A DNA stretch of 64,000 bases from Arachis hypogaea (Eukaryota > Streptophyta > Magnoliopsida > Fabales > Fabaceae), in NCBI RefSeq assembly GCF_003086295.3, contig NC_092038.1, positions 133,165,132-133,229,131 of the forward strand, written 5' to 3'. Below are positions 39,360 through 61,587 of the stretch, piece by piece. The translations under genes and the position numbers were made by a program. Within the stretch, counting starts at the first letter, position 1, and the number at the start of each line of letters is the position of its first letter. Under the pieces are notes generated by a model that saw only the letters and a program-made list of their open reading frames with translations, was not told the DNA's origin and searched no databases.

Positions 39360-42300
39360 CCTGTGCAAGTATTTGGTGGGCTGATACAGTTTCAAATAAT
39401 GTCCATCACTGACGATGCAAGCATGCAGCAGATGTTCTATATTTATCGACAAACTCGATTTCACGTGCCGGTGATAGAGCTGTACGTTGAGTTTGAACAA
39501 CAGTCGGGGATGGGTACGGTCGGCGACGAGGTCAATGTTGATGAGCTCGGGGATATAGATTGGGAAGAAGATAATAATGACAGCGAAGAGAAATTCGAAG
39601 CTAACTATGAAGTCGATGACGAAAACGATGATGGAGACTTGGCAGGCAATCCGGTGGTGCAGAATGAGGCGTATGCCATTGTAAGCCAACACCCGTTTGG
39701 TGTTCCGTCTTTTATGCAGACTCTAGATCTCGAAGTCATGCATGCCCCAGAATTTCCTGAGTATGCGAATACGGGTATGTTATGATTATTAACTCAAGTT
39801 TTCTATAGTGCTTAATTTATTTGCCTTGTCTGACTGATGGTGGTGCGCATGTCGTAGGTGAAGGCAACGTTGCGGCAGAAGATGGCAAGTTTAGTGTCGG
39901 AATAGAATTTGGTTCGAGAGAGTCGGTGATATCTGCAATCAAAAGCTACACCATCTCTAGAGGAGTTGATTACACTGTGTATGAGTCTGAGCCGCAGACA
40001 TTCTATGCGAAATGCAAGGGGGTATGGTGTAGGGTGCGACTGGCTTATCCGAGCTAGCTTGATTCGAAAAAAAGCTTGTTGGGAGAGCAGGAGATACAAT
40101 GGCAAGTACACGTGTACCATGGGCACGATTTCACAAGATCATCCCAAGTTGGACTCAGACACAATTGCTGATGCCATTAGGCCGTTGGTCGAAGCAGACC
40201 CCTCGATAAAGGTGAAGTCTGTTATTGCAGAAATTCAAGGTAGGTTCAACTACACTGTGAGTTACCGCAAGGCTTGGTTGGCAAAGCAGAAAGCTGTCGC
40301 AAAAGTTTTCGGTGATTGGGAAGTTTCTTACCAGATTCTTCCAGTATGGTTGAAAGCAATGACAGTGAAGATGCCAAGGTCTCGTGTTCAAATTAAAACG
40401 CTCCCTGTTTACCGTGAGAGTGAGGAGGTTCAAGGTGTAAGAGTTCTGCACCACATTTTTGGAGCTTCTATCCGTGTATTGTAGCATTCAGACACTGCAA
40501 GCCACTGGTGCAGGTTGATGGCACGCACCTATACGGAAAATATAAAGGTGCACTTCTGGTAGCGGTTGCACAAGATGGGAATCAAAACATTGTGCCTATT
40601 GCATTTGCGATTGTCGAGGGCGAGAAAGCAGACGCGTGGGAGTTTTTCCTAACCAATTTGCGGAGATATGTTGTTACCATTGATGGTGTGGGTATTATTT
40701 CTGACCGCCATACCTCCATCGACGCTGCAATAGCTCGCAGTAACGGTGCATGGTTACCACCAAGGGCGTAGCACATGTACTGCATCAGGCACATCGGGTC
40801 CAACTTCTTAAGGAGGTTCAAGGCTCCATATTTGCATAAACTCATGGTGAACACAGGTATTTCAACTCAATGTTATGGTTCAATTCATAGTAAATTTCAA
40901 ATTTGTGGCATCTGCTTATGATTAAATGGTTTGTTCAACAGGCTATTCTAGGACGGAGCAGGAGTACAACAAAAACTACCAAAGGCTCAAAGAGCGGGGT
41001 GAGGCATATACTTAATGGTGTGATGAGATCGGTGTTGGCATTCGATGGTGGTTATCGTTGGGGACATATGACGACAAACTTGGTAGAGTGCATAAATTCT
41101 GTCCTGAAGGGTGCACGTAACCTTCCTGTGACTGCCCTTGTCCGGTCAACTTTCTATTGGCTGAATGAGTTGTTCACTCGGAAGAGTACCGAGGCCCATG
41201 AGCGTCTCCGCAACGGATTCACGTATTCAGAATTTGCAACGAAGAGAGTTGAAGAAAGCTTCCGACGTGCAGAAAACATTGTGGTCAACCGGTTCGACAG
41301 GCGCAACGAGATGTTTGAGGTTCGCGAAATGCAAGATGGTACCATTTACACTGTTAACCTTGCACAACGACACTGCGACTGTGGCCATTTCCAGGTCGAG
41401 CGACTTCCATGTTGCCACGTGCTTGCATGTTGCGCCAACCAGCGTCTTGATTGGCAAGTGTATGTGCACGATGTGTACAAGATGTCTGAAATTTGCAAGG
41501 TGTACAGAGGCGAGTTTGTTCCGATGGGTGACCTATCTACGTGGGATAGATACGAAGGAGCGAAGGTGATCGCCAACTGGACATTGAGGCGTGCGACGAA
41601 AGGAAGGCCGAAGTCAACCCGATACTTGAATGAGATGGATTCGCGGGATATGTGTGGTCCTCGCCGGTGCACTATATGTGGACACGAGGGACATAGCCGC
41701 AGCCGATGTCCGCAGCGCGCAGGTCCAAGTTCCGCTGGAGGTCATTAGTGGTTAGGCTTTTCAATGTAACTTTCTTATGACATACTTCACAATTATATGT
41801 TATTTTTTTGTAACCTCGTCATTTACTTTAACGTAGTTAACAATTTATAATAAGTAAAGTTTTTAAGTTTGTTATTTATTTTTTTGGAGAACAAACATCT
41901 CGATCCAAACAGAGTTATACAGGAGCAAAGCTAAATATGTCATAATAATAATACTGAATAGAATCATCTAAATATAACATACGACACTGAATACAAATCT
42001 GAATACAATGCTGAATACAAGATCAACTGCAACTAACTACTTCCTCGGCACCTTCTTCGAATACAAGGATGGGGTGTATTTGTTCGAAGGTGCAGTCTGT
42101 GTCCGTAAGTTATACGGATGACCCTGAGACACACCGGCGTCTAGCCCACTGTCGACGTCAGGACCACTGTCGAAATCTGTCATGCTCGCACAACCAGTGT
42201 CATACAAACCAATGCCACTCATCCCCGGAGCACTCGATCCACCAAGATCATACCAGTGCTGCAAGTCGTATCCCAAGTCTCCCTCTTCCTGCTGCAGGTA

Positions 42301-43307: not shown

Positions 43308-44078
43308 CTAATTAACAATTAAATACAATTAATAGTAATTACTGATAACTATTTATAAACCTAATAATCATAATACTAGGAATTAAAAACAATACATGTT
43401 CCTGTTGCTCATGAGGCGGGACTTCCTGGTGAGAGTCAGCTGGTTCTTCCTGTTGCTGCTGTGGTTCATCAGCGCCAACCTCTTCGCCTAGAACTCTATC
43501 TGACAGTCGCAAGTGAATCTCATACTGCTGCGTGTACCAGTCGTAGTACACTGGGAGAGGATGGAAGTCAATAATCTCTTCGCCTAGCTGCAATGTGTTA
43601 TAGCGGTCAGATGTCCATCTGTTAACCCATTGACTGTAAATCTGTCCCCATTCATGGTTCTGTGCTCCTGTCAACCGCTTGCAGTGATCACAACCAAGGT
43701 CGAACGCGGGGCCTGGTAGTAGCTGCTGCATCCCGAACTGTCGTCTGACCCGGTCTGTCGCGTGCCACTCTATGCACTCGAATGACATTAGAGGCGATTG
43801 GGTGGAGCACATAACCATATGGGGAGCGAGGCCATCCGGAATCCCCACTCCCATATATGGCCGCCATATAAATTGCACAATAGTTACCAAGAGGCCGATT
43901 AGAAAAACTATTCTTCTGAATAAAAACATTGGACATTAATGGTACAACTTACGTCGTCAACTCCCATGTCGTCGAGTCCTCGCCTAAAATGTGCAGTAGG
44001 CCGCCATATATATCTCGTATGTCGGCGCCAATGACTCCACCTAACGAAAACAGAATAACAATATTAATAAGAAGAACA

Positions 44079-44079
44079 A

Positions 44080-44153
<74 letters not shown>
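44079..44153. repeat. (AAT)n microsatellite in a PMD intron
   Basis: About 25 AAT units. Related AAT/ATT runs fill the large first intron of the same gene (about 44960-45660, densest at 45430-45490). Confidence 0.95.
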
Positions 44154-44156
<3 letters not shown>

Positions 44157-45441
44157 CAATATGAATAAGCTTGATAATAATAATAAGAATAACAATAACG
44201 ATAAAAGCCAATACCGTCGCGCTAGTGGAATACCAATATTGCCGAGTTGATCACGGGGTATAGGTGCCAGGAACGGCATACGCTCCCACGCCCAAACAAA
44301 AAGTAGTATCAGTGGGCCATCCATTTTCTTGCAGTTGTATTGTGAGGCACGACACAACGATCTGTATAGGTGTGCCAGACTGGCTGCTCCCCAACTATAC
44401 CCTGAAATCCGGGGAAAATCCCGAAGTAGCGGTAGAAACTTCGAGTTCAATGAAACGGTCGACTTATCCGGAAACACAATTGTATCGAGCACGCAGAAAA
44501 TGTGCGCTCTGACGTACCGCTCGAGAGACTCCTGAGTATCACACGGCTCGGTGTCTCTGCACTGCCGAACCCAAGCAATATTAACCTTTCCCAACACGTG
44601 ATCGTTCAGACCAGGCTCCCGACCAAAACACGCAATGCAGTTCTCCACCAAAAACTGGTGGTATCTGATCTTCCCGTAACAGCCTCCCCATTAATCGGGA
44701 GACTAAGAATATAACTCACATCGTCCAACGTCACCGTCACTTCACCGACCGGAAGATGAAACGTGTGAGTCTCCGGCCTCCAGCGTTCCACCAAAGCACT
44801 CGGTAGTGCAGAATGACCTCTCATTTCGCCTGCTCGCGAAACGTGTTGAAACCCAGTCAATGCTAATGTCGATGCAGCTACCTCGTTAAAGGTATCTGGC
44901 GGATCCAATTTTCTGGGCAACAAATTTATGATAGCCTGCAAAAAAATAATGATAATTATTAAATTCTAAATAATATCGATTATAACATAATAATAAATTG
45001 TTAAAAAATCACAAAAATTTATCTATTATTTATTAAACAGTATTATTAATTACTAAAAATTAATAATAACTTATTCTCAATATTATAACCAGTATTATAG
45101 AATAATCATAATAACACTCTAATTATAATAATAACTACCCAAATATAACAATAATAATAAACATTTATTATAATATCTATAACCTAAACGGTTTGTTATA
45201 AACATACAGTATTAATTATTATTACAAAATATTACTAAAGTATTAAACGTAATAATTTTTTTTCTACGTAAACATTATTAAAAAAACCGTTTACTGTTAA
45301 CAGTATTATTATTATTATTATTACTATCATAAAAAATAATAATAAATCACTAAAAAATAATAATAAATTATTAAACATTATTGAAATTAAAAATTATTAA
45401 TAAATTATTTTCATTAACATACCCACTATTATTATTATTAT

Positions 45442-47674: not shown

Positions 47675-47683
47675 TAATTAAAT

Positions 47684-48583
47684 GGGAGATTCTACTATGC
47701 TGAACCCATTTCCTTTCTTTACATGCTGATGACAAATGGAGAGGCTGCCGCAATGACACGCGTTGAGAGAGACTGCCCAGGAAAGCTAGCTTTCTGCTTT
47801 GCAACAGAATATGGGTCCCACACGCTTTTATTTGTCGGTTACTTTTCAGGTGTTTATGTTTCTAACGTTGGATTAACTAAGGTGTTAATTTTTTTGTAAT
47901 TAAGGTTGGTAGTTGCAAAAACTGTAATGGGTTATTTTACAAAAAAATGGTTTGGGTTTAACCAAAAAAGACCTTTGTCTTATTACTAAGAGTGGATTGT
48001 AAGACCACCAAAAAAAGGATTGGATTAGATTGACCCAAAAAAAAAAAAAGAGGTATGTTTATCATGTTACAAAATTTTTTGTTTTGCTGAAAAGTCTTAA
48101 ATAAAAATATCATAAATAAAAAGCCTATAATAATGTATAATTTAATAATTAAAGTTGTGACCATATTTGTTGGCAAGATAAAAGATAGTGATAATATAAT
48201 TTTTGAATTGAAAATGAAGTGTTAATTTTTTTTTATGAAATTAAAGAGCATTTTTTTAAAATGAATTGTCAATAACAATCACCTTTATTTACTTGTAACG
48301 TAGAGAGTACGGTACTCCCAGTTATTTTATTACTCGGTTTTCTTATCGCTACATTTATAATTTTTATTTTTTTTAAATTGTTAATAATTTCAATTAACAT
48401 AAATAAGTGAATGAAAATACAAATAAAAATAAGAAACATAAATATGAGGGGAAAAAAGTAAAAAAAAAATATTATAAAAATAAATTAAAATAAAAATATG
48501 AAGGCTATGAAAATAAATAATCATAAAATTAAATAATCAGTAAAAATTATTGATATACATAGTATGACCTATAACAGAAACAA
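47684..48583 (+). repeat. Left terminal inverted repeat of MULE E
   Basis: About 900 bp, pairing almost base for base with 59746-60646 reversed. Inner end is near TATAACAGAAACAA. It will contain the promoter side of the hybrid-binding-domain gene, as MULE TIRs often do. Confidence 0.9.
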
Positions 48584-49285
48584 TAATTATGGTATTAAAT
48601 GTTATTGTTCAATAATTTAATTTTGCAAACAGTCTATTAGAGACTTAGAGTAATGTGTCATAGGAGAGAGTCTCATGTCATCGTTACAGATGTGAGATGA
48701 ATAGTGTGAAGCAAATATTTTAGAATATAATTTTTTATTGTATTTATGAAAGACCAACAGAAATAATGAATAATGATATTCCTAGTTATGTTGTTCCTGA
48801 GACCTGTTTTTTCTTTTTTCCATTAAGACATTAAAAACCGAATTTTTTTCCCAAGTTTTAGGTGGTCATTTTTTTTCTCTTTTTATCTCCTTCTATTTTT
48901 TCATCTTTTATGTAAACAAAGTTTTAAATCAACCTGCCAACATTTGTCTTAGTGATAGAATATGTTGGTGTGATGTAAATATTGTAATCGTTAGAGAAAA
49001 AATGTTTAAATTTTTTATTTTTATTTATGATGGTTATTAGTAAGACAATTATTTACTAATAATGTTGTTATAGTTATTATTTATGTTAGTTGTTATTATT
49101 ATTAGTATTATTGTTATTATTATTATTATTTTGTTTGGAATGAACTTTTAGGTGGCTTATAAAATGCTCTCCTTATGTATTCTACGAATTAGTGTTAGCT
49201 GAGAAAGAAGATATTAGTGGTGTCAGGGGTGCTTTCTGTCTCCTTGCTCTATGAAACACATTTTCTTTTGTATACTTAAGTGATA
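48584..49285. other. Leader region before the hybrid-binding-domain gene
   Basis: AT-rich, with ATT microsatellite-like sequence at 49080-49130. It probably holds the promoter and 5' leader. No other gene seen. Confidence 0.5.
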
Positions 49286-50170
49286 ATGAGCACCGACGGT
49301 GGTCGTTTTCCATTCTACGCGGTGCGAAGGGGTCGGGTTCCCGGCGTTTATCGCTCATGGCAAGAGTGTGAGCAACAAGTCAATGGCTATCGAAACAGCG
49401 AACATCGTGGGTTCCGTAATTTGGCTGAGGCCGTGGCTTGGCTGCGCAGCGCCGCAGCATCTCCCGCCCGACAGCCAACACCGCCTGTTCAAACAGTGAG
49501 AAGAAAACCTTCCAAGTTGTTAGAGGTGGCCTTCTGTTCAATGTCTTCATCGCAGCTAGTATCTTCCGGAATAGTTCCATCCAACTGCCAGGAATGTGAT
49601 GGTGGCAGCAACCCTGTTGAACAGGGAGGTGAGATGCAAAAACTTTACTTCTAATACTTTTATCTAAGTTTTTCATTTAGCAAGCTTTTAATGCCAGAGT
49701 GAGTGTGATGTTAATGTGCAGTGGTAGAGCCAGCAAGTGAGAGGGCGTTCATGCATGTAGAAGACATGGAACTAATGTTGTTGAGAGCGTGTTCGTTCTT
49801 TCAAATTGGTCTCCCAATTTTTGTCCCCCACGAGATCAACCCGAAGGATGATAATGTGCTTTTTGGTTTCACGGTGGTGCTCCCCCACAATGGAAGAGGA
49901 CTCGATCTTGTGGCTCACGGTCCGTTGTGCTACAGCGAACACTTTGCTCGTCAAGAAGTTTCGTTCACAATGTTGGATAAGATTCTTTCTACTATGGGTT
50001 ATACTATTCGTGATTACAATCATCACATTGTTGTACGTGTCACGGCCCAGTTGAATCAGGAGAAGAAGGAAGAAGTTGACCGATTGAACAACCGAATTCG
50101 TAAACTTGAGCTTGAGAACGAGGAGCTTAGGGGACAAGTTGAAATGTTTGGGGAAATGTTAGAGGAATAG
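49286..50170 (+). CDS. RNase H1-type hybrid-binding domain plus coiled-coil protein in MULE E
   Basis: Two exons (49286-49628 and 49722-50170) give 263 aa with no break. Residues about 9-52 (FYAVRRGRVPGVYRSW, then CEQQVNGY and FRNLAEAVAWL) match the N-terminal hybrid-binding domain of RNase H1, the same fold as in caulimovirus viroplasmin. In RNase H1 this domain grips RNA-DNA hybrids. No catalytic RNase H domain follows. A linker rich in Ser and Pro leads to an unfamiliar region with IGLPIFVPHEINP and VLPHNGRGLDLVAHG. The C-terminus (EEVDRLNNRIRKLELENEEL) is a clear coiled coil, suggesting dimerisation. It is the only unbroken gene in the element. Function is unknown; binding of hybrid or double-stranded nucleic acid is inferred. 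The start at 49286 is the first ATG in frame. Confidence 0.8.
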
Positions 50171-51671
50171 ATTACGCCTAATAGTCTTTCTGTATGTGGT
50201 TCTTTTTTAAAGGTTCTTTTTTATTTGATAAGATGAGAGACCTGCCTTTATGGGGTTGTAAGGGACAATGAAGATGGTGCTTTGGTTGGGCTTTTGACCA
50301 CAAAGACACTTAATTTGGGTCCTAATGGAATAGGGTTTTCCGTTGGGTTCCCTCTAGGTTTAATGAAGTAATTGTTAAGTTTTATTTATCAACTGGCTGT
50401 ATGAAATATGTAAGTTTGTTAAGCTTAATTAGATGGATGTTGATCAGTGTATTGAAAACGATTCTCGAGTCCAAAGAGCTTTTAAAATTTATTTTTTCGA
50501 AAATTTGTTTTCCCAAAAAAAAAAAAGAGATGCAACAAACTAAATTAAGAAGCTAATATTGTCCAACTAAACTAATAGAATAATAAGCTAAGACAATTAA
50601 CCGCTTAAGTTTGTAATCAAGGTGATGACCGGTCTTTCTTTCAAATTTGTACTTGCACCAAATTGGAATAAATTTCTAATTCGATGATTAATAACTAAAA
50701 TTAAGAATCCGTTGTTGCATCAAAAAATCAATACTAGCAATCTTTCTAACCATCAGTGAAAGAAATAATTGTTATAATAATTTTTTATTTGACAGTCACT
50801 TATAAAGTTTTTGATAATGAAATTTAAAAAATCAACAAACCTAAATACACTAATGAGTGACCAGTCCGTATTTTTTGGTGGAATTGTTTTGCATGGAGTA
50901 ATAAAAGTTTGTCTAACTTTTAAAAAGATTAATTTTGTAAAAGAATGTTGTATTTAAAATTTTTATACATGAATAGTAACGGTTAAATTTAATGTTTGTA
51001 TTTTTAAGATTTGAGTACATGAATAATATAATTTTTTTGAAATTTTTAAACTATTAATGTTGTAGATGATTGTTGTATTTGACATGCCAGTTAATGTATT
51101 TTTGAATAAATTTTGTCAATTAATTTATTTAAGATATATCAAAAAAATTAAACAGGCAACACTGAAAACTAAAAAACAATATTCATCTACAATTATAATT
51201 GGAATTTATTTAAACATATTTATTATTCTTAAGAGAAAAAGTGATAGGATTTATTAGTTATTAAATCATACAGTCATTACGAAAGAAAGATTTTGAAAAT
51301 TATCTTCTGGTGAGAGTGGCGTGTACTTAAACAAATGTCAGTAGTCATGTCAACGGTCATGTTGCCGTTACCCTAAGGCCTATGACTGCATACATGGGGA
51401 AAATGCATAGCAGGTTGTGATTGAAAGAGTCATTCCAGTCTGATTGCTTCTTCTATAAGCCTCTTTGGTAAATAAAAAAATATATTTCTTTTGGGAATAA
51501 TATATATTTAGAAATGTAGGAGTAACTTTTTTTTAAAGGAATAATGATGGAGTTGTGTCTGTTCAGTTGGGCTAGGTCACTAATGGGCCATGATATGATA
51601 TGAGCCCATTTCATGGTTTCATATAACACATGTGGAACTATTCATAACCATAGTCCATGCAAGTTTCGGCA
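50171..51671. other. AT-rich spacer in MULE E
   Basis: 3' region of the upstream gene and promoter side of the Ulp1-like gene. No exon recognised. Confidence 0.5.
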
Positions 51672-54600
51672 ATGGAGACATGTGCTACTGTGGAAGAGAT
51701 ACTTGGAAAAATGAACGAACAAGTTGATGCACTGAAGGAGAAAAATGACAATGTCTCTCTCGCAAGGTGAGTAATGCAATCCTAGTAATAAACCTTTGTG
51801 ATTCTTGTTATGTGGTGTGTGTTATTTTTCCTCTGACAAGTTAACACATGGTTGTGTTTCGAGCAGTGAGGTCGCTAAAGGGACGGACGGTGGTGACGGG
51901 ACAATCGACGACGATCATAACATCAGGTTTATCCGCATGTTCCAGGAGGTTGGTTTTCTGCACAACATGTTGTGGCCATAGGTTTGAATTAGGTGTATAG
52001 TTGTTAGTAAGTCTAGCTTACGTATGTAGCTGTATGGATATTGCAGATAATAAACCAGAATAAAATGACCAGGGAGGTGATGAAGACCCTAAATGAAGAC
52101 ATTAGGACTATCTCTGGGATCCTAGTGGAACATGGGAAGATTCTCTAATCTCTAATTGTTGCGGTTGGTTCTCTGGCCGACCTGAAGAAAGAAGGCGTGC
52201 AAGGCAACGCACGGATGGTCGCGTGTAAGAAGACGCGGGCAAAGGCGGCAGATGAACCAGAGGCGACTTTGGTTAGCAAGAAATCTGTGGGAGTTAAACG
52301 TGGTGCCGTAAAGATCTCACCGCCACTGAAGCCCACAACTAGAGGGGACACGGCCCGCCAGAGGCAGACACAAAAGAACCGAAACGGTGGCCCCACTAAA
52401 TCCGCTAAGCTAAAAGTAAGTGAAGTTTTTTTTGTTTTGGCAATTTACGTCCAAAAGTATCAAGTTATTTGCTTCATCATTTACTGTTGGTGCAGCGCAA
52501 GTTAACATTTGAAAACCAGGATTCTGCGTCAACTGAAGGTAGTGACGTCTGCCAAACTGAGCATGGGTCGTTGTTCACATATCACACACACCTCGCCTTC
52601 CATGTTGCATCTGATATGCCGCAAGTAATGAATTTAATGTTTGGGTATTTAGTAATATTTCTCTCCTATGTGAATTTTCCTGGTCTTAGTCCTACTAGAA
52701 TTTACTTACACGGATTTTGTGTTGCTTTGCTTGGGTAGTGTCTCGAGTTGGCATTTCGGCCACCAGACGGAATGCATTTTCAGGGGTCGGAGTTTGTCAT
52801 GGCCGCTTACATTTTCTCGAAGAATATGGATGAACGGTACGTATGTATGTGACATGGCTTGGTGAATGTGAGTTGTCGTAATGTTACACTTGAGATGTAT
52901 TCATGTATCGGAGCGTGACCATGCTTGTTTAATGTTTCTTGTGGTAGGGAGATTCTAGTTGCGGATGAGCACGCACAGGGTGATCGGCGTACATTATGGA
53001 GCCTAAGACCGGGGCAGCAAGTTGTTGACGACGTAAGTAGTGGTTCACATACGTTGTTGTTATACGTTGGTGTGTGGGAAGCCTTAGTTGCAGTCTTGGA
53101 TAACCGTCTTTGTGGCAACAGGTTATCAACATGGTGGCCTCCATGCTCAGCTTCGACAACATGTCTCCTAAGTGGTTTTTGCCAACCACCTTTGCGGTAA
53201 AATTATGTCCCCATATCCAGTAAATTGTGCTAACGATTCTTCTTTTCATGAGAAGTTTGAAATGAATTTGTCGTTACAGAAAAGGCTGTGGAAAATGTGT
53301 AACTTTATGATTAGAATTATGACAACTTTTCCTTCTCGGGATGAAAGATAGCGATAACATAATTCCGGTTTGATAATTGAAATAATAGTCTGATTACGTA
53401 TGGAATAAGTAAAAAAAAAAACATTGAACATAGGTTCCGAGAAGCTATGGTACATAGTGATTTTTGATTTCTTATCCATGGTTAATTACATTATGCCTAT
53501 AAAGTGGTGTTTGGTGTTGTGTAATTTATTTTAAGCAATATTGGAATGTTAAAAATTTGCTAACATTTATAAATTTTGAAATTAAATTTTAATTTTCATT
53601 GTTTATTATGAAATTAGACGTTTTCTGAAAATTACTTGTCAACGGCAATCTCTTTTTTCCACTTGTGACATAGAGAGTACGTCACCGTTAGCAAAACCTG
53701 AGGCGGTTGACTCGTGTATGTGTCTGACGTAAAATTGTGTTTCAACGTCCAGCAAATTGCGCTAAGTCCTGTGAACCATAGCATTGACACTTTCGAGTTC
53801 ATCCGGTCTAACTTTATGGGCTATGCGGATAACTTGCATCGGGTAACAACTTATTTCTGCATTTTAATTGACAATATTCCTTTGCCGTTACGTTAGTAAC
53901 TTATTTACTTCATTTGTGTAGATATATGTTCCAATGTACAGGGAGCAACATTGGTACCTGATGATTGTGGATCTAGTGTTCTGCAGGCTAATTTACCTAG
54001 ATTCTGCGAAGAATGTGTCGGAATATGAAGCCAGGATTGCTCAAATGAAATATGTGGTGAGTACATAGCACGTGACCCTTATCAACTCCTCATGCATTTC
54101 AGGCATTAATAAATGTTTCCACCTTAGTAGCTTTGAGTACAACTAATAAATTGAGACCTTTGCAGGCCTTCTTCATAGAGAATATGTTGCAAGATACGAG
54201 GTTCTAGAGCGATAAGGGACATTATAAACCACATCCCTCCACATTCGACCTCGACGAGCCGGAGGTTGGCCACCAAATTGAGGGCTCGTATGTACCATAC
54301 TAATCCATGTTTTTGTTTGTTGAACCCTAAAATAATAATGTAATAACAACACATGTGACTTTACTTTCCCGTGTAGAAACGACTGTGGAGTGTGGGTTGT
54401 TCAGTGGATGATGCAATCTTGGGTGTTTAGAGATTTCATGTTAGAGGTAACAAACACTGCCAAATTGAAATGATGCTTTAATAGACATTGTTAGATGCCA
54501 TTGTTGTTACGTTGCAAACCTATCTTACCTACATACTAGTTCAATTGATACTGTAGTTGTCATTGCTTGAAATCGTTGTTGCTACTGTCCGGAATTAGCT

Positions 54601-54822
54601 AAACCAATTAAATGATGGCTATTGTAGGATGTCACCAATCAGACTAGGATGTGGCTTGCTCTTGATTTGGTCATGGGTAGACATAACCCAATTGCTCGCG
54701 AGGTAGGTCGCAAGGCCATGGCTGATTGGGACAGAAATATGTCCCGTTCCAAGCGTCGTCACAATGGCAACAATGCACCGGCCGATGCAGGTCCATCCCG
54801 TAGTGGCAGCTTGACGTTCTAG
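51672..54822 (+). pseudogene. Ulp1-like C48 cysteine protease of MULE E, two in-frame stops
   Basis: Twelve exons join in phase to 514 codons: 51672-51766, 51867-51948, 52047-52415, 52496-52624, 52739-52836, 52948-53032, 53122-53196, 53753-53842, 53922-54056, 54166-54287, 54377-54446 and 54628-54822. The C48 catalytic residues are kept: H351 in REQHWYLMIV, D368 in IYLDSA, and C430 in NDCGVWVVQW. The N-terminus has a short coiled coil and a Lys-rich basic stretch that could be a nuclear signal. Stops are TAA at codon 93 (52146-52148) and TAG at codon 400 (54205-54207). There is no frameshift. Family members cleave ubiquitin-like proteins such as SUMO. Transposon-carried ULP genes have unknown substrates. 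It could be a recently dead gene, or this copy may be complemented elsewhere. Confidence 0.87.
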
Positions 54823-55841
54823 GTGGTATCGTAGATATTTTGTTGCGGTGGATATTTTGCTATGATGAATTGTGCACCTAGTTGCATATTTTGCTATGAT
54901 GCATTGTGCACCAAGTTGCGTGAACCTCACGTGTCTCGTTGGGGATATACTTGGGGCCTCGCTTTTGTCAATATGAGGCCCTGTGCCACCGCAAATGAAT
55001 CTTTCTTATGCTAATGACTCAACTATTATAATAGGAGTACATGTATTAAACTGACTAGATATTCCCTACATGTGCATGAATATATTGTAAAACTTGCAAC
55101 TCTTTTGCTATTGTTTCTTAATGCCTAGCTAAAAACATTGAGAAGTGATGAATAAGATCCACATCGTCGCACTCGTTTCAAGCGAATTTTATAAAATAAT
55201 TGGAAGCCATTCTATGATTAAATTGTAACAAGTTAGGAAGTTATGGAAGACTATGATTACCGTTCTGGGCAAGAATGATAATATGGAACCAAAAGCCCGT
55301 AGCATTCGATACACTAGTGGGTTGAACCCAGTTTACTAATTTCCTTTTTGGCAATAATAACTTAAAGCCCAAAAGCTGACTAACCCGGCCCAGGTTTAGT
55401 TTTTAATCAAGCCATGTGGTTGCTACCATAAACCCAGCGACTTACTCCTCAGGTTGGGGAATTGTTATTAAGGTGACATGGGCTGCATTATCAAAAGCCC
55501 AACAAGTAACCCCTCAAGCCCAAATATCATTATTTACTCTCACGATTGGGTAACCTCCAAGCCCCAAATTCATTCTATAGAGGCGCACATGTTATCATTG
55601 CTATTGGGCCTTGCAAAATTTTACAAAAACAAAATCAATTATACTTGAAGGCAGGTTAACAAATATAGCCACCCTCAACTTACGGTGTTGAGATAAGATG
55701 CTAGAAAAAAATAACAAACACCAGATCCCTGGAACAATACACCAACAACTAAGCAGACTCAAATAACTCTGCATATAATATGCTTCTCGTTGCCATGCCA
55801 GTGACAAGGGAACCATACATTGTTTAGCGGGATAGCATCTG
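54823..55841. other. Gap between convergent genes of MULE E
   Basis: 3' ends of the Ulp1-like and FRS-like genes meet here. No exon seen. Short minus-strand open frames at 54619-54930 and 55601-55816 look like chance. Confidence 0.5.
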
Positions 55842-58488
55842 TTAGTGATCGGTATTCCCCCAACCTTTGCGTGATCCTTTCTGTATTCTTCCGAGAAAGA
55901 CCCTAACCTGCATCATTATGGAAGCAACTGTTCATAACAATTTTTTCGCAGTCAACAGTTATTCGCATACAACATGACCCTAAATACTTGGATCATCGCA
56001 AGCTTTTAACGATGATACATATACACATGCAGGCATCCTAACCTCGTTTGCCCAATCGTCATTGAAGGTGCATCCTGCCTTCGCATTGTTTCCTACGTAG
56101 TTGCCGGAGGTCGAATCAGCGAACTGTCTCCTTAAGTCATCTAGGTTCCGTGCATAATTTCCAGCATTTCCATGGCCAGGTTCCCTCTGAAAGACGGAAG
56201 TTAGTTGAATGACATTGCTAATACGTAAAGAACACATGACAACTACCATGTGAAGTGAATACCTTGAAACTCGCAGGTGTCATCCTAGATGAATCATCTT
56301 GGCATTCTGCTCCGGCCACACCGTGCTGGTCCGCATCGTTAGCTGCTGACGACTTCTTCCCCCTATCCTGGGGACATTTTCTTTTCGTATGGCTTACGTG
56401 CTTGCAGTTAGCACATCGCCTTCTCTTGCCTAATTGCCTTTGTTTGGCCAGTCGAGGGGCGCCCTTAGGGTTCGCAACCTTGGGATCCCGTACCACCTTC
56501 TTCGTCCCCCTTGTGTCCCGTTCATATCCTAACCCCCGACATGCAAATTCCAGAGTATTGCACAAATTAACTATGCCATCGATTGCTTTTCGAAACAAAT
56601 TTTCATCTTGTGAACCAAGGTAAACAAGCCATTGAGCCTTTGTGTGGAGCGCCCCATGTCTAACCAAAAAACCTCTTTAGGTGGGATCGTCCACCTTCTC
56701 ACCATATTGATCTATATCTTTGGCATCTTTTCTCCATCGTCGCAGGACCAATCTTTCAGGTATTTCCTGCAGATGCGCTGCTTTCATCATAAAGAACATA
56801 TGCCTGCATGGGTACCCGTTCTTTTCCCAAAAAAAGCATTGACAGTCGAGTTTTCCAGTACTTCTCCCGAAGGCGGCCATTACCTGAACATCAGGTTTCT
56901 CATATTCCTCTAGATAATAAACGGTTGTATTCAAGCACCGTTTTTTCGTAAGTAGATTAACTGCTCCAGCTCCTTCAATCTCTTTCCTAACATATGCGAA
57001 CAACTCTCGAGTATAAACACTAGCAGCAGCTATCTCTATTGACCTCAAACATGTGGTCATAACCGGATTGGTGTAAATGGAGTTAAATTGTAGCAACATC
57101 TCTTTGTTCCGATATTCATGGACGACTAGCTCTAGATTTTGCACTAACTCGAGGATAGTATGGCTTGACTTCGAAAACTTGTTAACCACAGCATTTATTC
57201 CCTCACATCGCGACGTAGTCTGGAATCTGGCGCAAAACTTGTCACGTAAATACGCCTTTACCCATAGCTTTCGCTTCTCATGCATGTGCCTTGCCCAACT
57301 ACTGTCATGCAGCCCAAACTCCTCAATTGCTGCAGCCCAATCCTCTTTGAATTCATTAACCTCCATGTCCATGTACAACCAACGCTTGAACAAACTGCGG
57401 AGGCGTTCGTCTTTTACATTTGATGTCACATTTTTTTCCACATGCCACGCACACAAATGATGGGTTGCCTCAGGTAAAACCGACTTCACAGCTTTTATCA
57501 TTGCTTTGTCCCCGTCAGTAACAACTACACAAGGTTTCTTTTGGCACATAACCTCTAGCAAATTCTGTAACATCCACGTATACGACGATACAGTTTCATC
57601 AATCAACAACCCAAAACCAAAAATAGTAGTTTGCTTATGGTTGTTTGAGCCTGAAAAAATCACTACTGGACGTTTGTATCTATTTTTCCTATAAGTGGAG
57701 TCAAACGCTAAGACATCTCCAAAACACTGAAAATCAGACCGGCTATTCCCATCAGCCCAAACCATGTTACCAAGCCTTTCATCTTTTGTGAGGTTGTAGC
57801 GTGCAACATACATAGGGTCAACAACAGCCTTTCCCTCAAGGTAAACCAACGTTGCATTCGCATCACCATCAGCTATTCGTGACCGCCTCATCTTGTCCGC
57901 GTAGTTGTACGCATCCTTTTTCAAAAATCCCAACAAAGAGTATCCACCTGACATACCAGCCATGTGACCCAAGATTTTCGACGTCCCAATTCCATACGCA
58001 TGCATCCCGTCAATGTGAGCCTTTGCCGCGTCCGTCATTTTGCGATGACTGCGAATCAGGTAAGACATCCCAACAGGTGCTAGGTCATGGTTGTGATCCA
58101 GTACTACCTTCCTAACCTTCCATTTCTGCTCACTCTTCTCCAAGTATATTGATAGCATTGCTTTGCAGCCAGTCCGTGTTTCTGGTTTGTGTCCCCGCTG
58201 CCTATCAATCCTGTTATAGTGCTTGATTTCCCTCAATCCTTCCTTGTTACAAAAAAATTGATATCTCACAACATTACTGTGGCTATCTTTACCTGAGTCC
58301 CCTTTCCGTACCCCAAATCTGTTGACTCTTCCATACCTTCGATAAAACTCATACGCATCTTCCACACTTTTCCAAACTTGGTTCAAAATATCATCCGCGC
58401 TCAAGTCAAACCCTGGTTCTCCTTCAGGCAAATGTTCCTCCTGAACCTCATTACCACCAACCTCTTCCGCATTCATCTCCTCGTTCAC
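55842..58488 (-). pseudogene. FAR1/FRS-like MULE transposase with zinc knuckle, one in-frame stop
   Basis: Read leftward, three exons (58488-56263, 56186-56043 and 55907-55842) join in phase to 811 codons. Domains: FAR1-type DNA-binding zinc region at about residues 45-135 (GCKAMLSIYLE, VLDHNHDL); MULE catalytic domain at about 245-440 with VLAFDSTYRK, VVTDGDKAM and SRCEGIN carrying the likely D, D, E; SWIM finger near 550-580 (CQCFFWEKNGYPCRH); and a CCHC knuckle (CANCKHVSHTKRKC) in the C-terminal part. A TAA at 56677-56679 (codon 604) is the only break and separates the knuckle from the rest, so a protein with complete catalytic and SWIM parts could still be made. FAR1 and FHY3 are domesticated relatives that act as transcription factors; the TIR context argues for a transposase. 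The start at 58488 is the first ATG of the frame. Confidence 0.88.
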
Positions 58489-59745
58489 GTCACTTACACC
58501 ACCCCCCGCACTCCCCTATCGCCTCACCTCTATTCGCATCCATCTGCAACTCCAAACATTACATAATCTGAATACTCATAAAAACCTCATTACTCTACAA
58601 TTTCCTACAATACATGTTCTATCTAAACTATACATGCATGAACCAAGTACCCCTAGTTGAGTGCAAATTAGAAACTCGCTACCTTGGAAGGAAAGAAATT
58701 GAAGCATTTCCAGCTATTATCCCATTAAACCAAGGTTGTAAAAAGAGTCTAAACTATACATGCATGAACCAAGTACCCCTAGTTGAGTGCAAATTAGAAA
58801 CTCCCTACTTGAAAAGGAAAGAAATTGAAGCATTTCCAGCTAGGTTGTAAAAAGAAATGAACACAAGGTCATATCAATTTTACATATCAATAGTCAGAAC
58901 ATTAACAAAGAGCAACCTAGCAACATTAACTGCTCATATGAACACGTTAACAACATCAAAACCGTTATGTCCTCTTCAATTAATTATTCAACTTTATAGC
59001 CGGGACCAAAAACAGCAACCTAAAAAAAGTCCAAAGAACATCGCCTCACAAACAGTTCATCAAATTGCCAGCTCGTGACGACCAACAAACTCGAACTAAG
59101 ATCAAACTCAATACTTATGTTAGCAATTTCGCAAAAAATTCAGCTGCCTGACACACACTCGAAGAACAGATCCTCAAGAACAATTTTATTCAATATCAAA
59201 TTAATAATAAGAAAATCATTAACTTTCAAAACCACCTGAACAATATTTTAAACACTTCAACAAATAACATGAACGAGGACCAGCCACGAACATAAATACC
59301 TGGAATACTCAACTCAGACGGAGATCCTATGACGGCTGAACGGCGGACTAAGCACGGCAATACCTGGAACACTCAACTCAACGACGGCGACGGTGCAGGC
59401 CTCCACGGCAGACCGTGAAATCCTCAGGCGACCAGAGTGGGATCACCGTCGGGGTCAGAACATGGGCGACGCGTGACAAAGAGCCATTTGACACGTTCCA
59501 GCAATGGACAAAGAAGGCTTCTTCAGGTTCGGCAGCGTGGAAGATGTGGGGACCTAGTCACTGCCTCACAAATGACACCTCCGTAGAAGCTAGGATTTTC
59601 TTTGTCATTCAGGATATCCCTTTCTTAGCCCTCTACTAAGATTTCGTTTTCTATTTCTTAGTATTGTTTCCTCCTCCCTTTTTTTATTTTTAAAAAATCC
59701 ACTTCAACAAAATTACAGAAATTACAATCAACATTCTGATATCCT
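58489..59745. other. Upstream region of the FRS-like gene
   Basis: It holds the 5' leader, a tandem duplication (58623-58848), AC-rich sequence, and a patch richer in CG at 59300-59600. That patch has a short direct repeat, AATACCTGGAA(T/C)ACTCAACTCA, at about 59297 and 59360. No exon recognised. Confidence 0.5.
58623..58848. repeat. Tandem duplication with about 126-bp period
   Basis: Two copies start at 58623 and 58749. Both contain ACTATACATGCATGAACCAA, TTGAGTGCAAATTAGAAACT and GAAGCATTTCCAGCTA. The second is slightly truncated. Confidence 0.9.
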
Positions 59746-60646
59746 TTGTTTCTGTTATAGGCCATACTATGTATATCAATAATTTTTACTGATTATTTAA
59801 TTTTATGATTATTTATTTTCATAGCCTTCGTATTTTATTTTAATTTATTTTTATAATATTTTTTTTACTTTTTCCCCCTCATATTTATGTTTCTTATTTT
59901 TATTTGTATTTTCATTCACTTATTTATGTTAATTGAAATTATTAACAATTTAAAAAAAATAAAAATTATAAATGTAGCGATAAGAAAACCGAGTAATAAA
60001 ATAACTGGGAGTACCGTACTCTCTACGTTACAAGTAAATAAAGGTGATTGTTATTGACAATTCATTTTAAAAAAATGCTCTTTAATTTCATAAAAAAAAA
60101 GTTAACACTTCATTTTCAATTCAAAAATTATATTATCACTATCTTTTATCTTGCCAACAAATATGGTCACAACTTTAATTATTAAATTATACATTATTAT
60201 AGACTTTTTATTTATGATATTTTTATTTAAGACTTTTCAGCAAAACAAAAAATTTTGTAACATGATAAACATACCTTTTTTTTTTTTGGGTCAATCTAAT
60301 CCAATCCTTTTTTTTTGTGGTCTTACAATCCACTCTTAGTAATAAGACAAAGGCCGTTTTTGGCTAAACCCAAATCCTTTTTTTGTAAAATAACCCATCA
60401 CAGTTTTTGCAACAACTACCAACCTTAATTACAAAAAAAAATTAACACCTTAGTTAATTCAACGTTAGAAACATAAGCACCTGAAAAGTAACCGATAAAT
60501 AAAAGTGTGTGGAACCTATATTCTGTTGCAAAGCAGAAAGCTAGCTTTTCTGGGCAGTCTCTCTCAACGTGTGTCATTGCAGCAGCCTCTCCATTTGTCA
60601 TCAGCATGTAAAGAAAGGAAATGAGTTCAGCATAGTAGAATCTCCC
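59746..60646 (-). repeat. Right terminal inverted repeat of MULE E
   Basis: Reverse complement of the left repeat with scattered single-base differences and small differences in A/T run lengths. Confidence 0.9.
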
Positions 60647-60655
60647 TAATTAAAG

Positions 60656-61032: not shown

Positions 61033-61131
61033 GTAGTCATTAGCTGATTTTTTTCTATATGGAAAAATTTTTTGTGTAATGCAATGAAATTGATAGATAA
61101 AAAAAAATTTTCACTACTATAATGTCAGCAT

Positions 61132-61414
61132 AAAATGCAACTTGCGTTTTATTCTTTTTTTTATTTTTTTTTGTTTATGAAATTAAACAAACGCAATTTG
61201 CGTTTTTCCTTTTTGAGAGTTTTCAATTTTTTTCTATTTCCTTTTGACCCAAAACGTAACATGCGTTTAGTGATTTGAATTTTTTTTGAAAAAACAAAAT
61301 GCAACTTGCGTTTTTTGTTGTGTCAAAATTTTTTTGAAGGCCACAAAACACAGGTTACGTTTTTAAAGTGTCAGAAAAATTTTTTTTGAAAGCATCAAAC
61401 GCAAGTTGTGTTTT
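61132..61414. repeat. Left subterminal palindrome array of MULE B
   Basis: Six palindromes start at 61132, 61189, 61251, 61296, 61345 and 61397, spacing 45-62 bp. Examples are AAACGCAATTTGCGTTT and AAAACGTAACATGCGTTT. Number and spacing match the left end of MULE A, though the sequence between them differs. Confidence 0.85.
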
Positions 61415-61587
61415 GTGAAGGAAAAATATTTTAAGCAAGAGTGTTGCCTATAAATACGAAGTGGGACTCATTCAAAGTTCCTCACTCCACTTCTCCTCAT
61501 AGTCCTCTTTTTTGCATATATGTCATAGTAGTGAATTTTTTTGGCAGTTAATTGTGTAAAAAAGTTGGGTTATGTGAGGTGGAAGTT

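What the first reader, a model, noticed from the sequence alone, without database searches (positions are those of the whole stretch)
47684..60646. One MULE carrying Ulp1-like protease, hybrid-binding-domain protein and FRS transposase
Long TIRs, a near-perfect 9-bp duplication and three multi-exon genes define one 13-kb element. MULEs with captured Ulp1 genes are established (Kaonashi type). Finding a complete FRS-type transposase gene and an RNase H1-like hybrid-binding gene between the same TIRs suggests a three-gene mobile module. One possible scheme, which is inference, is that the protease removes SUMO from silencing or repair factors while the hybrid-binding protein acts on nucleic acid at the site.
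Basis: partly seen in the sequence, partly recalled or inferred. Interest (0 to 1): 0.82.

Follow-up and report, generated by a model that had tools for sequence, protein, structure and literature searches.

The report
Peanut jumping gene carrying three genes
A 13-kb peanut transposon carries its own transposase gene, a SUMO-protease-like gene and a gene for a predicted two-domain nucleic-acid-binding protein; this copy is partly broken, but relatives suggest that the extra genes travel together, perhaps to dodge gene silencing.

Summary
Real, at the stated coordinates. Two 900-bp terminal inverted repeats (96.25% identical) with a 9-bp duplication (8 of 9) bound a 12,963-bp Mutator-like element (MULE) in Arachis; two peanut proteins tagged A03 match it. 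Three genes lie inside: a hybrid-binding (HBD) and an Ulp1-like gene (+), and a FAR1/FRS-type transposase gene (-). "Complete" is wrong: the Ulp1 gene has two in-frame stops, the transposase one; only the HBD gene is open throughout. No second locus with all three genes between TIRs could be shown. Main new point: behind the HBD lies a predicted dsRNA-binding-like fold (best matches DCL4 dsRBD2 and DRB7.2, tied with other dsRBDs; sequence support below Pfam's cut-off), then a coiled coil, and no RNase H domain. Ulp1 in FRS/Jittery-like MULEs is known; my paper searches showed no HBD-dsRBD partner. Best reading, inferred: a MULE family whose accessory pair blunts RNA-directed silencing.

The parts
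47675..47683 (.). left target-site duplication TAATTAAAT
   Evidence: 8 of 9 match to the right side
47684..48583 (+). left terminal inverted repeat
   Evidence: 96.25% to right TIR over 907 columns
49286..50170 (+). HBD-dsRBD-like gene, exons 49286-49628 and 49722-50170, 263 aa, open
   Evidence: public model Ahy_A03g011075 (P0003) with another splice
49310..49441 (+). RNase H1 N-terminal hybrid-binding domain (residues 9-52)
   Evidence: PF01693 3e-18; PDB 1qhk 4.9e-8, 3bsu 7.5e-7
49748..50002 (+). predicted dsRBD-like domain (about residues 124-208 of the window protein, carried over from residues 129-213 of the modelled relative P0001)
   Evidence: Pfam hits below cut-off
51672..54822 (+). 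Ulp1-like protease gene, 12 exons, in-frame stops at 52146 and 54205
   Evidence: public model of this locus P0027 (HN51_013596)
53197..53752 (+). Ulp1 gene intron 7 holding diverged TIR-like sequence
   Evidence: 74% over 117 and 68% over 146 columns to the TIR; 75.2 bits against at most 32.8 in 100 shuffles
55980..58515 (-). FRS-type transposase gene (FAR1, MULE, SWIM; frame open from 58515, ATG at 58476), in-frame stop at 56677-56679; behind it, by eye, a CCHC zinc-knuckle-like stretch
   Evidence: public model Ahy_A03g011074 (P0068)
59746..60646 (-). right terminal inverted repeat
60647..60655 (.). right target-site duplication TAATTAAAG

Best explanation
SHOWN: a decayed, TIR-bounded FRS-type MULE of Arachis with three genes, pairs of which recur at other loci. 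The transposase gene reads inward from the right TIR; the HBD gene and then the Ulp1-like gene read inward from the left TIR. PREDICTED: the HBD protein is HBD + dsRBD-like fold + coiled coil; the Ulp1 protein is a SENP/Ulp1-fold cysteine protease with a helical, coiled-coil-like N-terminus. INFERRED: the transposase moves the element, and the accessory pair keeps it from being silenced. The HBD-dsRBD protein would bind duplexes made from the element (dsRNA from the long TIRs or from the converging genes, or RNA:DNA hybrids), or bind the host's DRB4/DCL partners, and so starve RNA-directed DNA methylation. The Ulp1 protein would strip SUMO (or a relative) from silencing proteins.
Against: No functional data at all. 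The dsRBD call is below Pfam's cut-off of 23.7 bits wherever bits were shown (18.5 in P0001; 15.7 for the window's own domain; 13.1, E 0.1, for the window's whole protein); a sequence profile found no PDB chain at E<=10; the model's mean pLDDT is 63.4 (69-84 by ten-residue block over 131-210) and no Foldseek match reached E 0.001. Canonical dsRNA-contact motifs look only partly present (motifs recalled). HBD residues are only partly kept (human F-K-K aligned to H-R-G; contact role recalled). Two of three genes are broken here. HBD was not found in Stylosanthes, although Ulp1 and FRS were. A nomenclature paper thinks Kaonashi-type proteases unlikely to act on SUMO (PMC6117577, passage).
Confidence: 0.4

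Rival explanations
1. The accessory pair serves transposition itself: the HBD-dsRBD protein binds R-loops or element ends, as mudrB is thought to help integration, and the Ulp1 protein tunes the SUMO state of the transposase or repair factors.
For: Additional ORFs occur in several MULEs and mudrB is said to be apparently required for integration (PMC6446971, passage). HBD is a nucleic-acid-binding fold. Inward-reading genes as in MuDR (MuDR gene order recalled).
Against: dsRBD folds read A-form RNA or partner proteins rather than DNA ends (established knowledge); top structural matches are silencing proteins, though a shared fold shows no function.
Confidence: 0.25
2. Passenger genes: host HBD and Ulp1 genes were captured by chance and the recurrence only reflects copying of one composite element.
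For: Ulp1 capture by MULEs is described as frequent and repeated (PMC2528002, passage). Broken frames here.
Against: Three HBD-linked Ulp1 proteins (window, P0042, P0021) fall in different Ulp1 lineages, each grouped with Stylosanthes proteins (87/85, 94/91 and 95/97; only the last reaches the strong-support mark), so one recent composite does not explain them easily. Catalytic columns are kept in most aligned relatives.
Confidence: 0.2
3. A KIU/VANC-type sequence-specific anti-silencing system in which the Ulp1 protein itself recognises DNA motifs in the element.
For: Some VANC genes of Vandal elements carry an Ulp1 domain, and such elements induce hypomethylation of their own kin (PMC13317346, passage).
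Against: No DUF1985 among Pfam hits of 33 family members. The tandem-repeat scan of the element gave 13 short, mostly AT-rich rows of 2-3 copies plus one TTA run, not motif arrays.
Confidence: 0.1
4. The dsRBD-like domain is a modelling artefact and the protein is an HBD plus coiled coil only.
For: Low mean pLDDT, shallow alignment of 18, no Foldseek match under 0.001, no sequence-profile hit in PDB. Whole-protein Pfam scans also gave weak hits to coiled-coil families such as Wtap (5 of 18) and bZIP (4 of 18).
Against: Two dsRBD-fold Pfam families hit from sequence alone, neither in reversed controls; all 50 listed VIA rows overlap model residues 129-213, and most are named as dsRBD, Dicer, RNase III or dsRNA-binding entries.
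Confidence: 0.12

Closest known systems
Jittery-like / FRS-type MULEs with an Ulp1 gene (melon, grapevine)
   Same: Jittery-like MULEs with an Ulp1-like gene, in either orientation (PMC2528002, passages)
   Different: No HBD gene is mentioned in the passages seen; TIRs here are 900 bp against 39-292 bp, or none, listed for plant Jittery elements (PMC6446971, passage)
Kaonashi (KI/KIU) MULEs of Arabidopsis
   Same: MULE with an Ulp1-like gene antisense to the transposase, one of three coding genes (PMC13317346, passage)
   Different: KI elements are non-TIR with mudrA; here long TIRs, FRS transposase, no DUF1985 hit
VANDAL21/Hiun with vanA, vanB, vanC
   Same: three-gene MULE with accessory genes; VANC is an anti-silencing factor
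   Different: accessory proteins of other families; anti-silencing is shown for VANC, only inferred here
Caulimovirus P6/TAV
   Same: HBD (PF01693) in a parasite's protein (PMC7102451, passages); DRB4 suppression named in a cited title
   Different: only the HBD was compared; P6 is a viral protein with other roles
Arabidopsis DRB7.2 and DCL4 dsRBD2
   Same: top, though tied, structural matches of the middle domain; DRB4 with DRB7.2 acts on inverted-repeat dsRNA
   Different: 13-16% identity; homology by sequence not shown
Helitron helpo1.3 of Pleurotus (capE)
   Same: a transposon carrying a PF01693 gene (PMC4289320, passages)
   Different: fungal Helitron; no Ulp1 or dsRBD gene in the passages seen

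Membership tests
Mutator-like element (MULE) | terminal inverted repeats with a target duplication of about 9 bp | tested here: met
   96.25% TIRs, 8 of 9 TSD
Mutator-like element (MULE) | MULE transposase domain with D, D, E and CxxH | tested here: met
   PF10551 1.7e-25; residues present in the window; D 105 of 109, D 99 of 108, C 102 of 103, H 101 of 103, E 111 of 112 rows with a letter; catalytic naming recalled
FRS/Jittery-type MULE | N-terminal FAR1 domain and SWIM or CCHC zinc finger | tested here: met
   FAR1 1.6e-19, SWIM 1.3e-5; the in-frame stop lies behind SWIM
FRS/Jittery-type MULE | transposase inside the Jittery clade in a tree | not tested
   no reference Jittery set was aligned
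Autonomous element | intact transposase gene | tested here: not met
   in-frame stop 56677-56679 and start region out of frame; relative P0081 reads on through the stop's place
Kaonashi (KIU) MULE | non-TIR element | tested here: not met
   900-bp TIRs
Kaonashi (KIU) MULE | VANC-type DUF1985 with Ulp1 | tested here: not met
   no DUF1985 at E<=1 in 33 members; HMMER's filters drop most weak matches
Ulp1/SENP SUMO protease (C48) | catalytic fold with His, Asp, Cys | tested here: met
   for the family: PF02902 in 30 of 33; the window copy has two in-frame stops
Ulp1/SENP SUMO protease (C48) | cleaves SUMO | not testable with these tools
   needs an assay
RNase H1 | N-terminal hybrid-binding domain | tested here: met
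   PF01693 3e-18
RNase H1 | catalytic RNase H domain | tested here: not met
   no RNase H hit in the 263-aa protein nor in the precomputed domains of the 25 Arachis hits
dsRBD superfamily | helix-strand-strand-strand-helix fold | tested here: met
   in a predicted model of relative P0001 only, of middling confidence
dsRBD superfamily | sequence match above curated cut-off | tested here: not met
   Dicer_dimer best 1e-4 among 9 domains; 23.7-bit cut-off not reached where bits are shown; no PDB profile hit
Pack-MULE | no transposase gene, host gene fragments only | tested here: not met
   transposase gene present, though broken

The most novel reading that the evidence does not exclude
A plant DNA transposon family encodes its own suppressor of RNA silencing: an HBD-dsRBD protein that mimics DRB7.2/DCL partner domains and hides dsRNA made from the long TIRs from DCL3, working with a SUMO-protease partner.
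Probability: 0.25. Interest if true: 0.85.

Novelty: new variant of a known kind. Interest (0 to 1): 0.6.

Why it matters
Few plant DNA transposons are known to encode an anti-silencing factor; VANC is the one I met in the papers seen. An HBD-dsRBD gene that recurs beside Ulp1 or transposase genes is a testable candidate that would act at the RNA level. It also bears on crop genomics: a peanut progenitor genome paper reads the large FAR1 family as transcription factors tied to fruit development (PMC5943715, passages), and a groundnut mapping paper lists FAR1 and Ulp1 genes as trait candidates (PMC11536578, passages). At this locus such gene models (P0068, P0027) are genes of one decayed transposon; whether those papers' own genes are too was not checked.

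Tried and rejected
Whole-genome copies of the TIR: the genome search 'own' was asked six times in the same form and never answered. The other DNA collections are described as bacterial, archaeal, viral or plasmid, and I made no scan of them; so TIR copy number, empty sites and dN/dS were not tested. Chance capture as sole explanation: set back by recurrence and by the Ulp1 tree. Kaonashi and VANC labels: set aside on TIRs and lack of DUF1985. Simple co-inheritance of HBD and Ulp1 does not fit well: the HBD path from the window to P0002 (0.49) is far shorter than the Ulp1 path from P0042 to P0028 (1.83), and HBD was not found in Stylosanthes; exchange between elements or unequal rates are both open. 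The Ulp1 and FRS searches scored only the 7,998 and 7,992 candidates sharing most words, and 120 of 268 FRS hits were listed, so links may have been missed; clustering at 90% also hides copies. In the FRS count one listed protein (P0083) was dropped before alignment; 119 relatives plus the window were counted. Short HBD models were left out of some alignments: A1 held 22 of 26 hits plus the window, A2 18 of 26; the Ulp1 alignment held 33 of 40. A look in viral structures gave viroplasmin rows and DRBM rows; whether any entry holds both was not looked into. Paper lists were capped.
Full report
OBSERVATION. The inverted repeats run 47684-48583 and 59746-60646 and align over 907 columns at 96.25% identity. 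Of 894 compared sites 21 differ, 18 by transition, K = 0.024; 16 of the 21 lie in the outer 300 columns and none in columns 450-750. The flanks carry TAATTAAAT and TAATTAAAG, 8 of 9; 333 of 434,730 flank 9-mer pairs do as well. With a legume rate near 8e-9 per site and year (recalled) the TIR pair would be about 1.5 million years old.

IDENTITY OF THE GENOME. Three public proteins are covered in full by exact 10-mers of the window's six frames: P0003 (Ahy_A03g011075, HBD), P0068 (Ahy_A03g011074, FRS) and P0027 (HN51_013596, Ulp1). So the window is most likely Arachis hypogaea, chromosome A03, or close A-genome kin.

GENES. HBD gene: exons 49286-49628 and 49722-50170, 263 aa, no stop; HBD at residues 9-52. 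Ulp1 gene: 12 exons, 51672-54822, placed by hand, all 11 introns GT-AG, in-frame stops at 52146 and 54205. FRS gene on the minus strand: FAR1, MULE and SWIM domains between 58476 and the in-frame stop at 56677-56679; homologous sequence goes on behind the stop to about 55980. Relatives without these stops exist: P0028 for Ulp1, P0081 for FRS. The closest FRS relative, P0067, is a 600-aa model that ends short of the stop's place, so it says nothing on that stop. The Ahy_ model P0068 leaves the FRS stop stretch out, and the HN51_ model P0027 leaves the two Ulp1 stop stretches out. I read the stops as decay of this copy.

RECURRENCE. HBD search: 26 hits, 25 Arachis and one fungal protein with an RNase H domain. 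Ulp1 search: 40 hits, which I count as 20 Arachis, 14 Stylosanthes, 5 Sesbania, 1 unnamed. FRS search: 268 hits, 120 listed. Links outside this locus: (a) HBD P0002 and Ulp1 P0042 bear consecutive tags; (b) P0021 and (c) P0013 are gene models whose head is the HBD protein and whose tail is an Ulp1 N-terminus, in the same order and on one strand as here; (d) HBD P0014 and FRS P0134 are two tags apart; (e, f) Stylosanthes Ulp1 and FRS proteins share contig lengths 84,978 and 261,841, that is 2 of 14 Stylosanthes Ulp1 hits and 2 of the 5 Stylosanthes proteins among the 120 listed FRS hits. Contig length stands in for contig identity, an inference. No locus other than this one was shown to have all three genes, and none of the others was shown to have TIRs. 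In the Ulp1 tree the HBD-linked proteins fall in different lineages that group with Stylosanthes proteins: window lineage with P0048, 87/85; P0042 with P0047, 94/91; the clade of the P0021 tail with P0046, P0049 and P0050, 95/97. The tail of P0013 was not in the tree.

ULP1 PROTEIN. Model of P0028: mean pLDDT 75.5, 77-97 by ten-residue block over 171-450; best matches SENP2, SENP1 and yeast Ulp1, NEDD8 proteases lower. SUMO specificity is inferred. A nomenclature paper holds that Kaonashi-type proteases are unlikely to act on SUMO (PMC6117577, passage), which weighs against the simple reading.

MECHANISM. Shown: anatomy and recurrence of pairs. Inferred: anti-silencing. The long TIRs are a natural source of inverted-repeat dsRNA; DRB4 with DRB7.2 is reported to sequester inverted-repeat dsRNA precursors processed by DCL3 (PMC8138440, passage); a caulimovirus HBD protein is linked to suppression of DRB4 (title seen); SINE RNA can bind a DRB protein and lower small RNAs (PMC2408557, abstract). 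These are leads, not tests.

PRINT. Searches bearing on the combination (some lists capped) returned Ulp1-MULE papers, VANC papers and one fungal Helitron with PF01693; no title or abstract start listed there describes an HBD-dsRBD gene in a MULE. The paper behind VANC-Ulp1 (Sasaki 2022) was not held and is known to me here only through a review passage; the melon and Hoen papers were not read.

VERDICT. A real and well-bounded element; a new variant of Ulp1-bearing FRS-type MULEs; this copy is broken in two genes; the HBD-dsRBD partner is the part worth following.

Noticed in passing
40894-41748 (+) and 43339-44690 (-): An ORF with a SWIM finger and, by eye, a CCHC knuckle, and two plant mobile domain ORFs on the opposite strand (PF10536 8.7e-22 and 1.5e-15): looks like a second, MuDR-type MULE remnant with antisense PMD a few kb left of the element.
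   Followed up: partly
53197-53752: Ulp1 intron 7 holds diverged TIR-like sequence in the left-TIR orientation; either an old TIR-bearing insertion or TIR growth from internal sequence.
   Followed up: partly
P0028-P0066 (Ulp1 relatives): Many of the 33 aligned Ulp1 relatives from Arachis and Stylosanthes end in a motif like S-x-S-x-T-I/F; meaning unknown.
   Followed up: no
58622-58716 and 58748-58842: Two copies of about 95 bp, 95.8% alike, just upstream of the transposase gene.
   Followed up: no
47684-48583 against 59746-60646: TIR differences cluster in the outer 300 columns (16 of 21), none in columns 450-750; gene conversion or decay of methylated cytosines could explain it.
   Followed up: no
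54852-54919: Two 34-bp tandem copies behind the last Ulp1 exon.
   Followed up: no
61100-61420: Repeated short motifs like AAACGCAAGTTGCGTTT in the right flank, one pair reported as an inverted repeat.
   Followed up: no
P0001-P0025: Databases name several of these HBD proteins Ribonuclease H although no RNase H domain is listed for them.
   Followed up: partly
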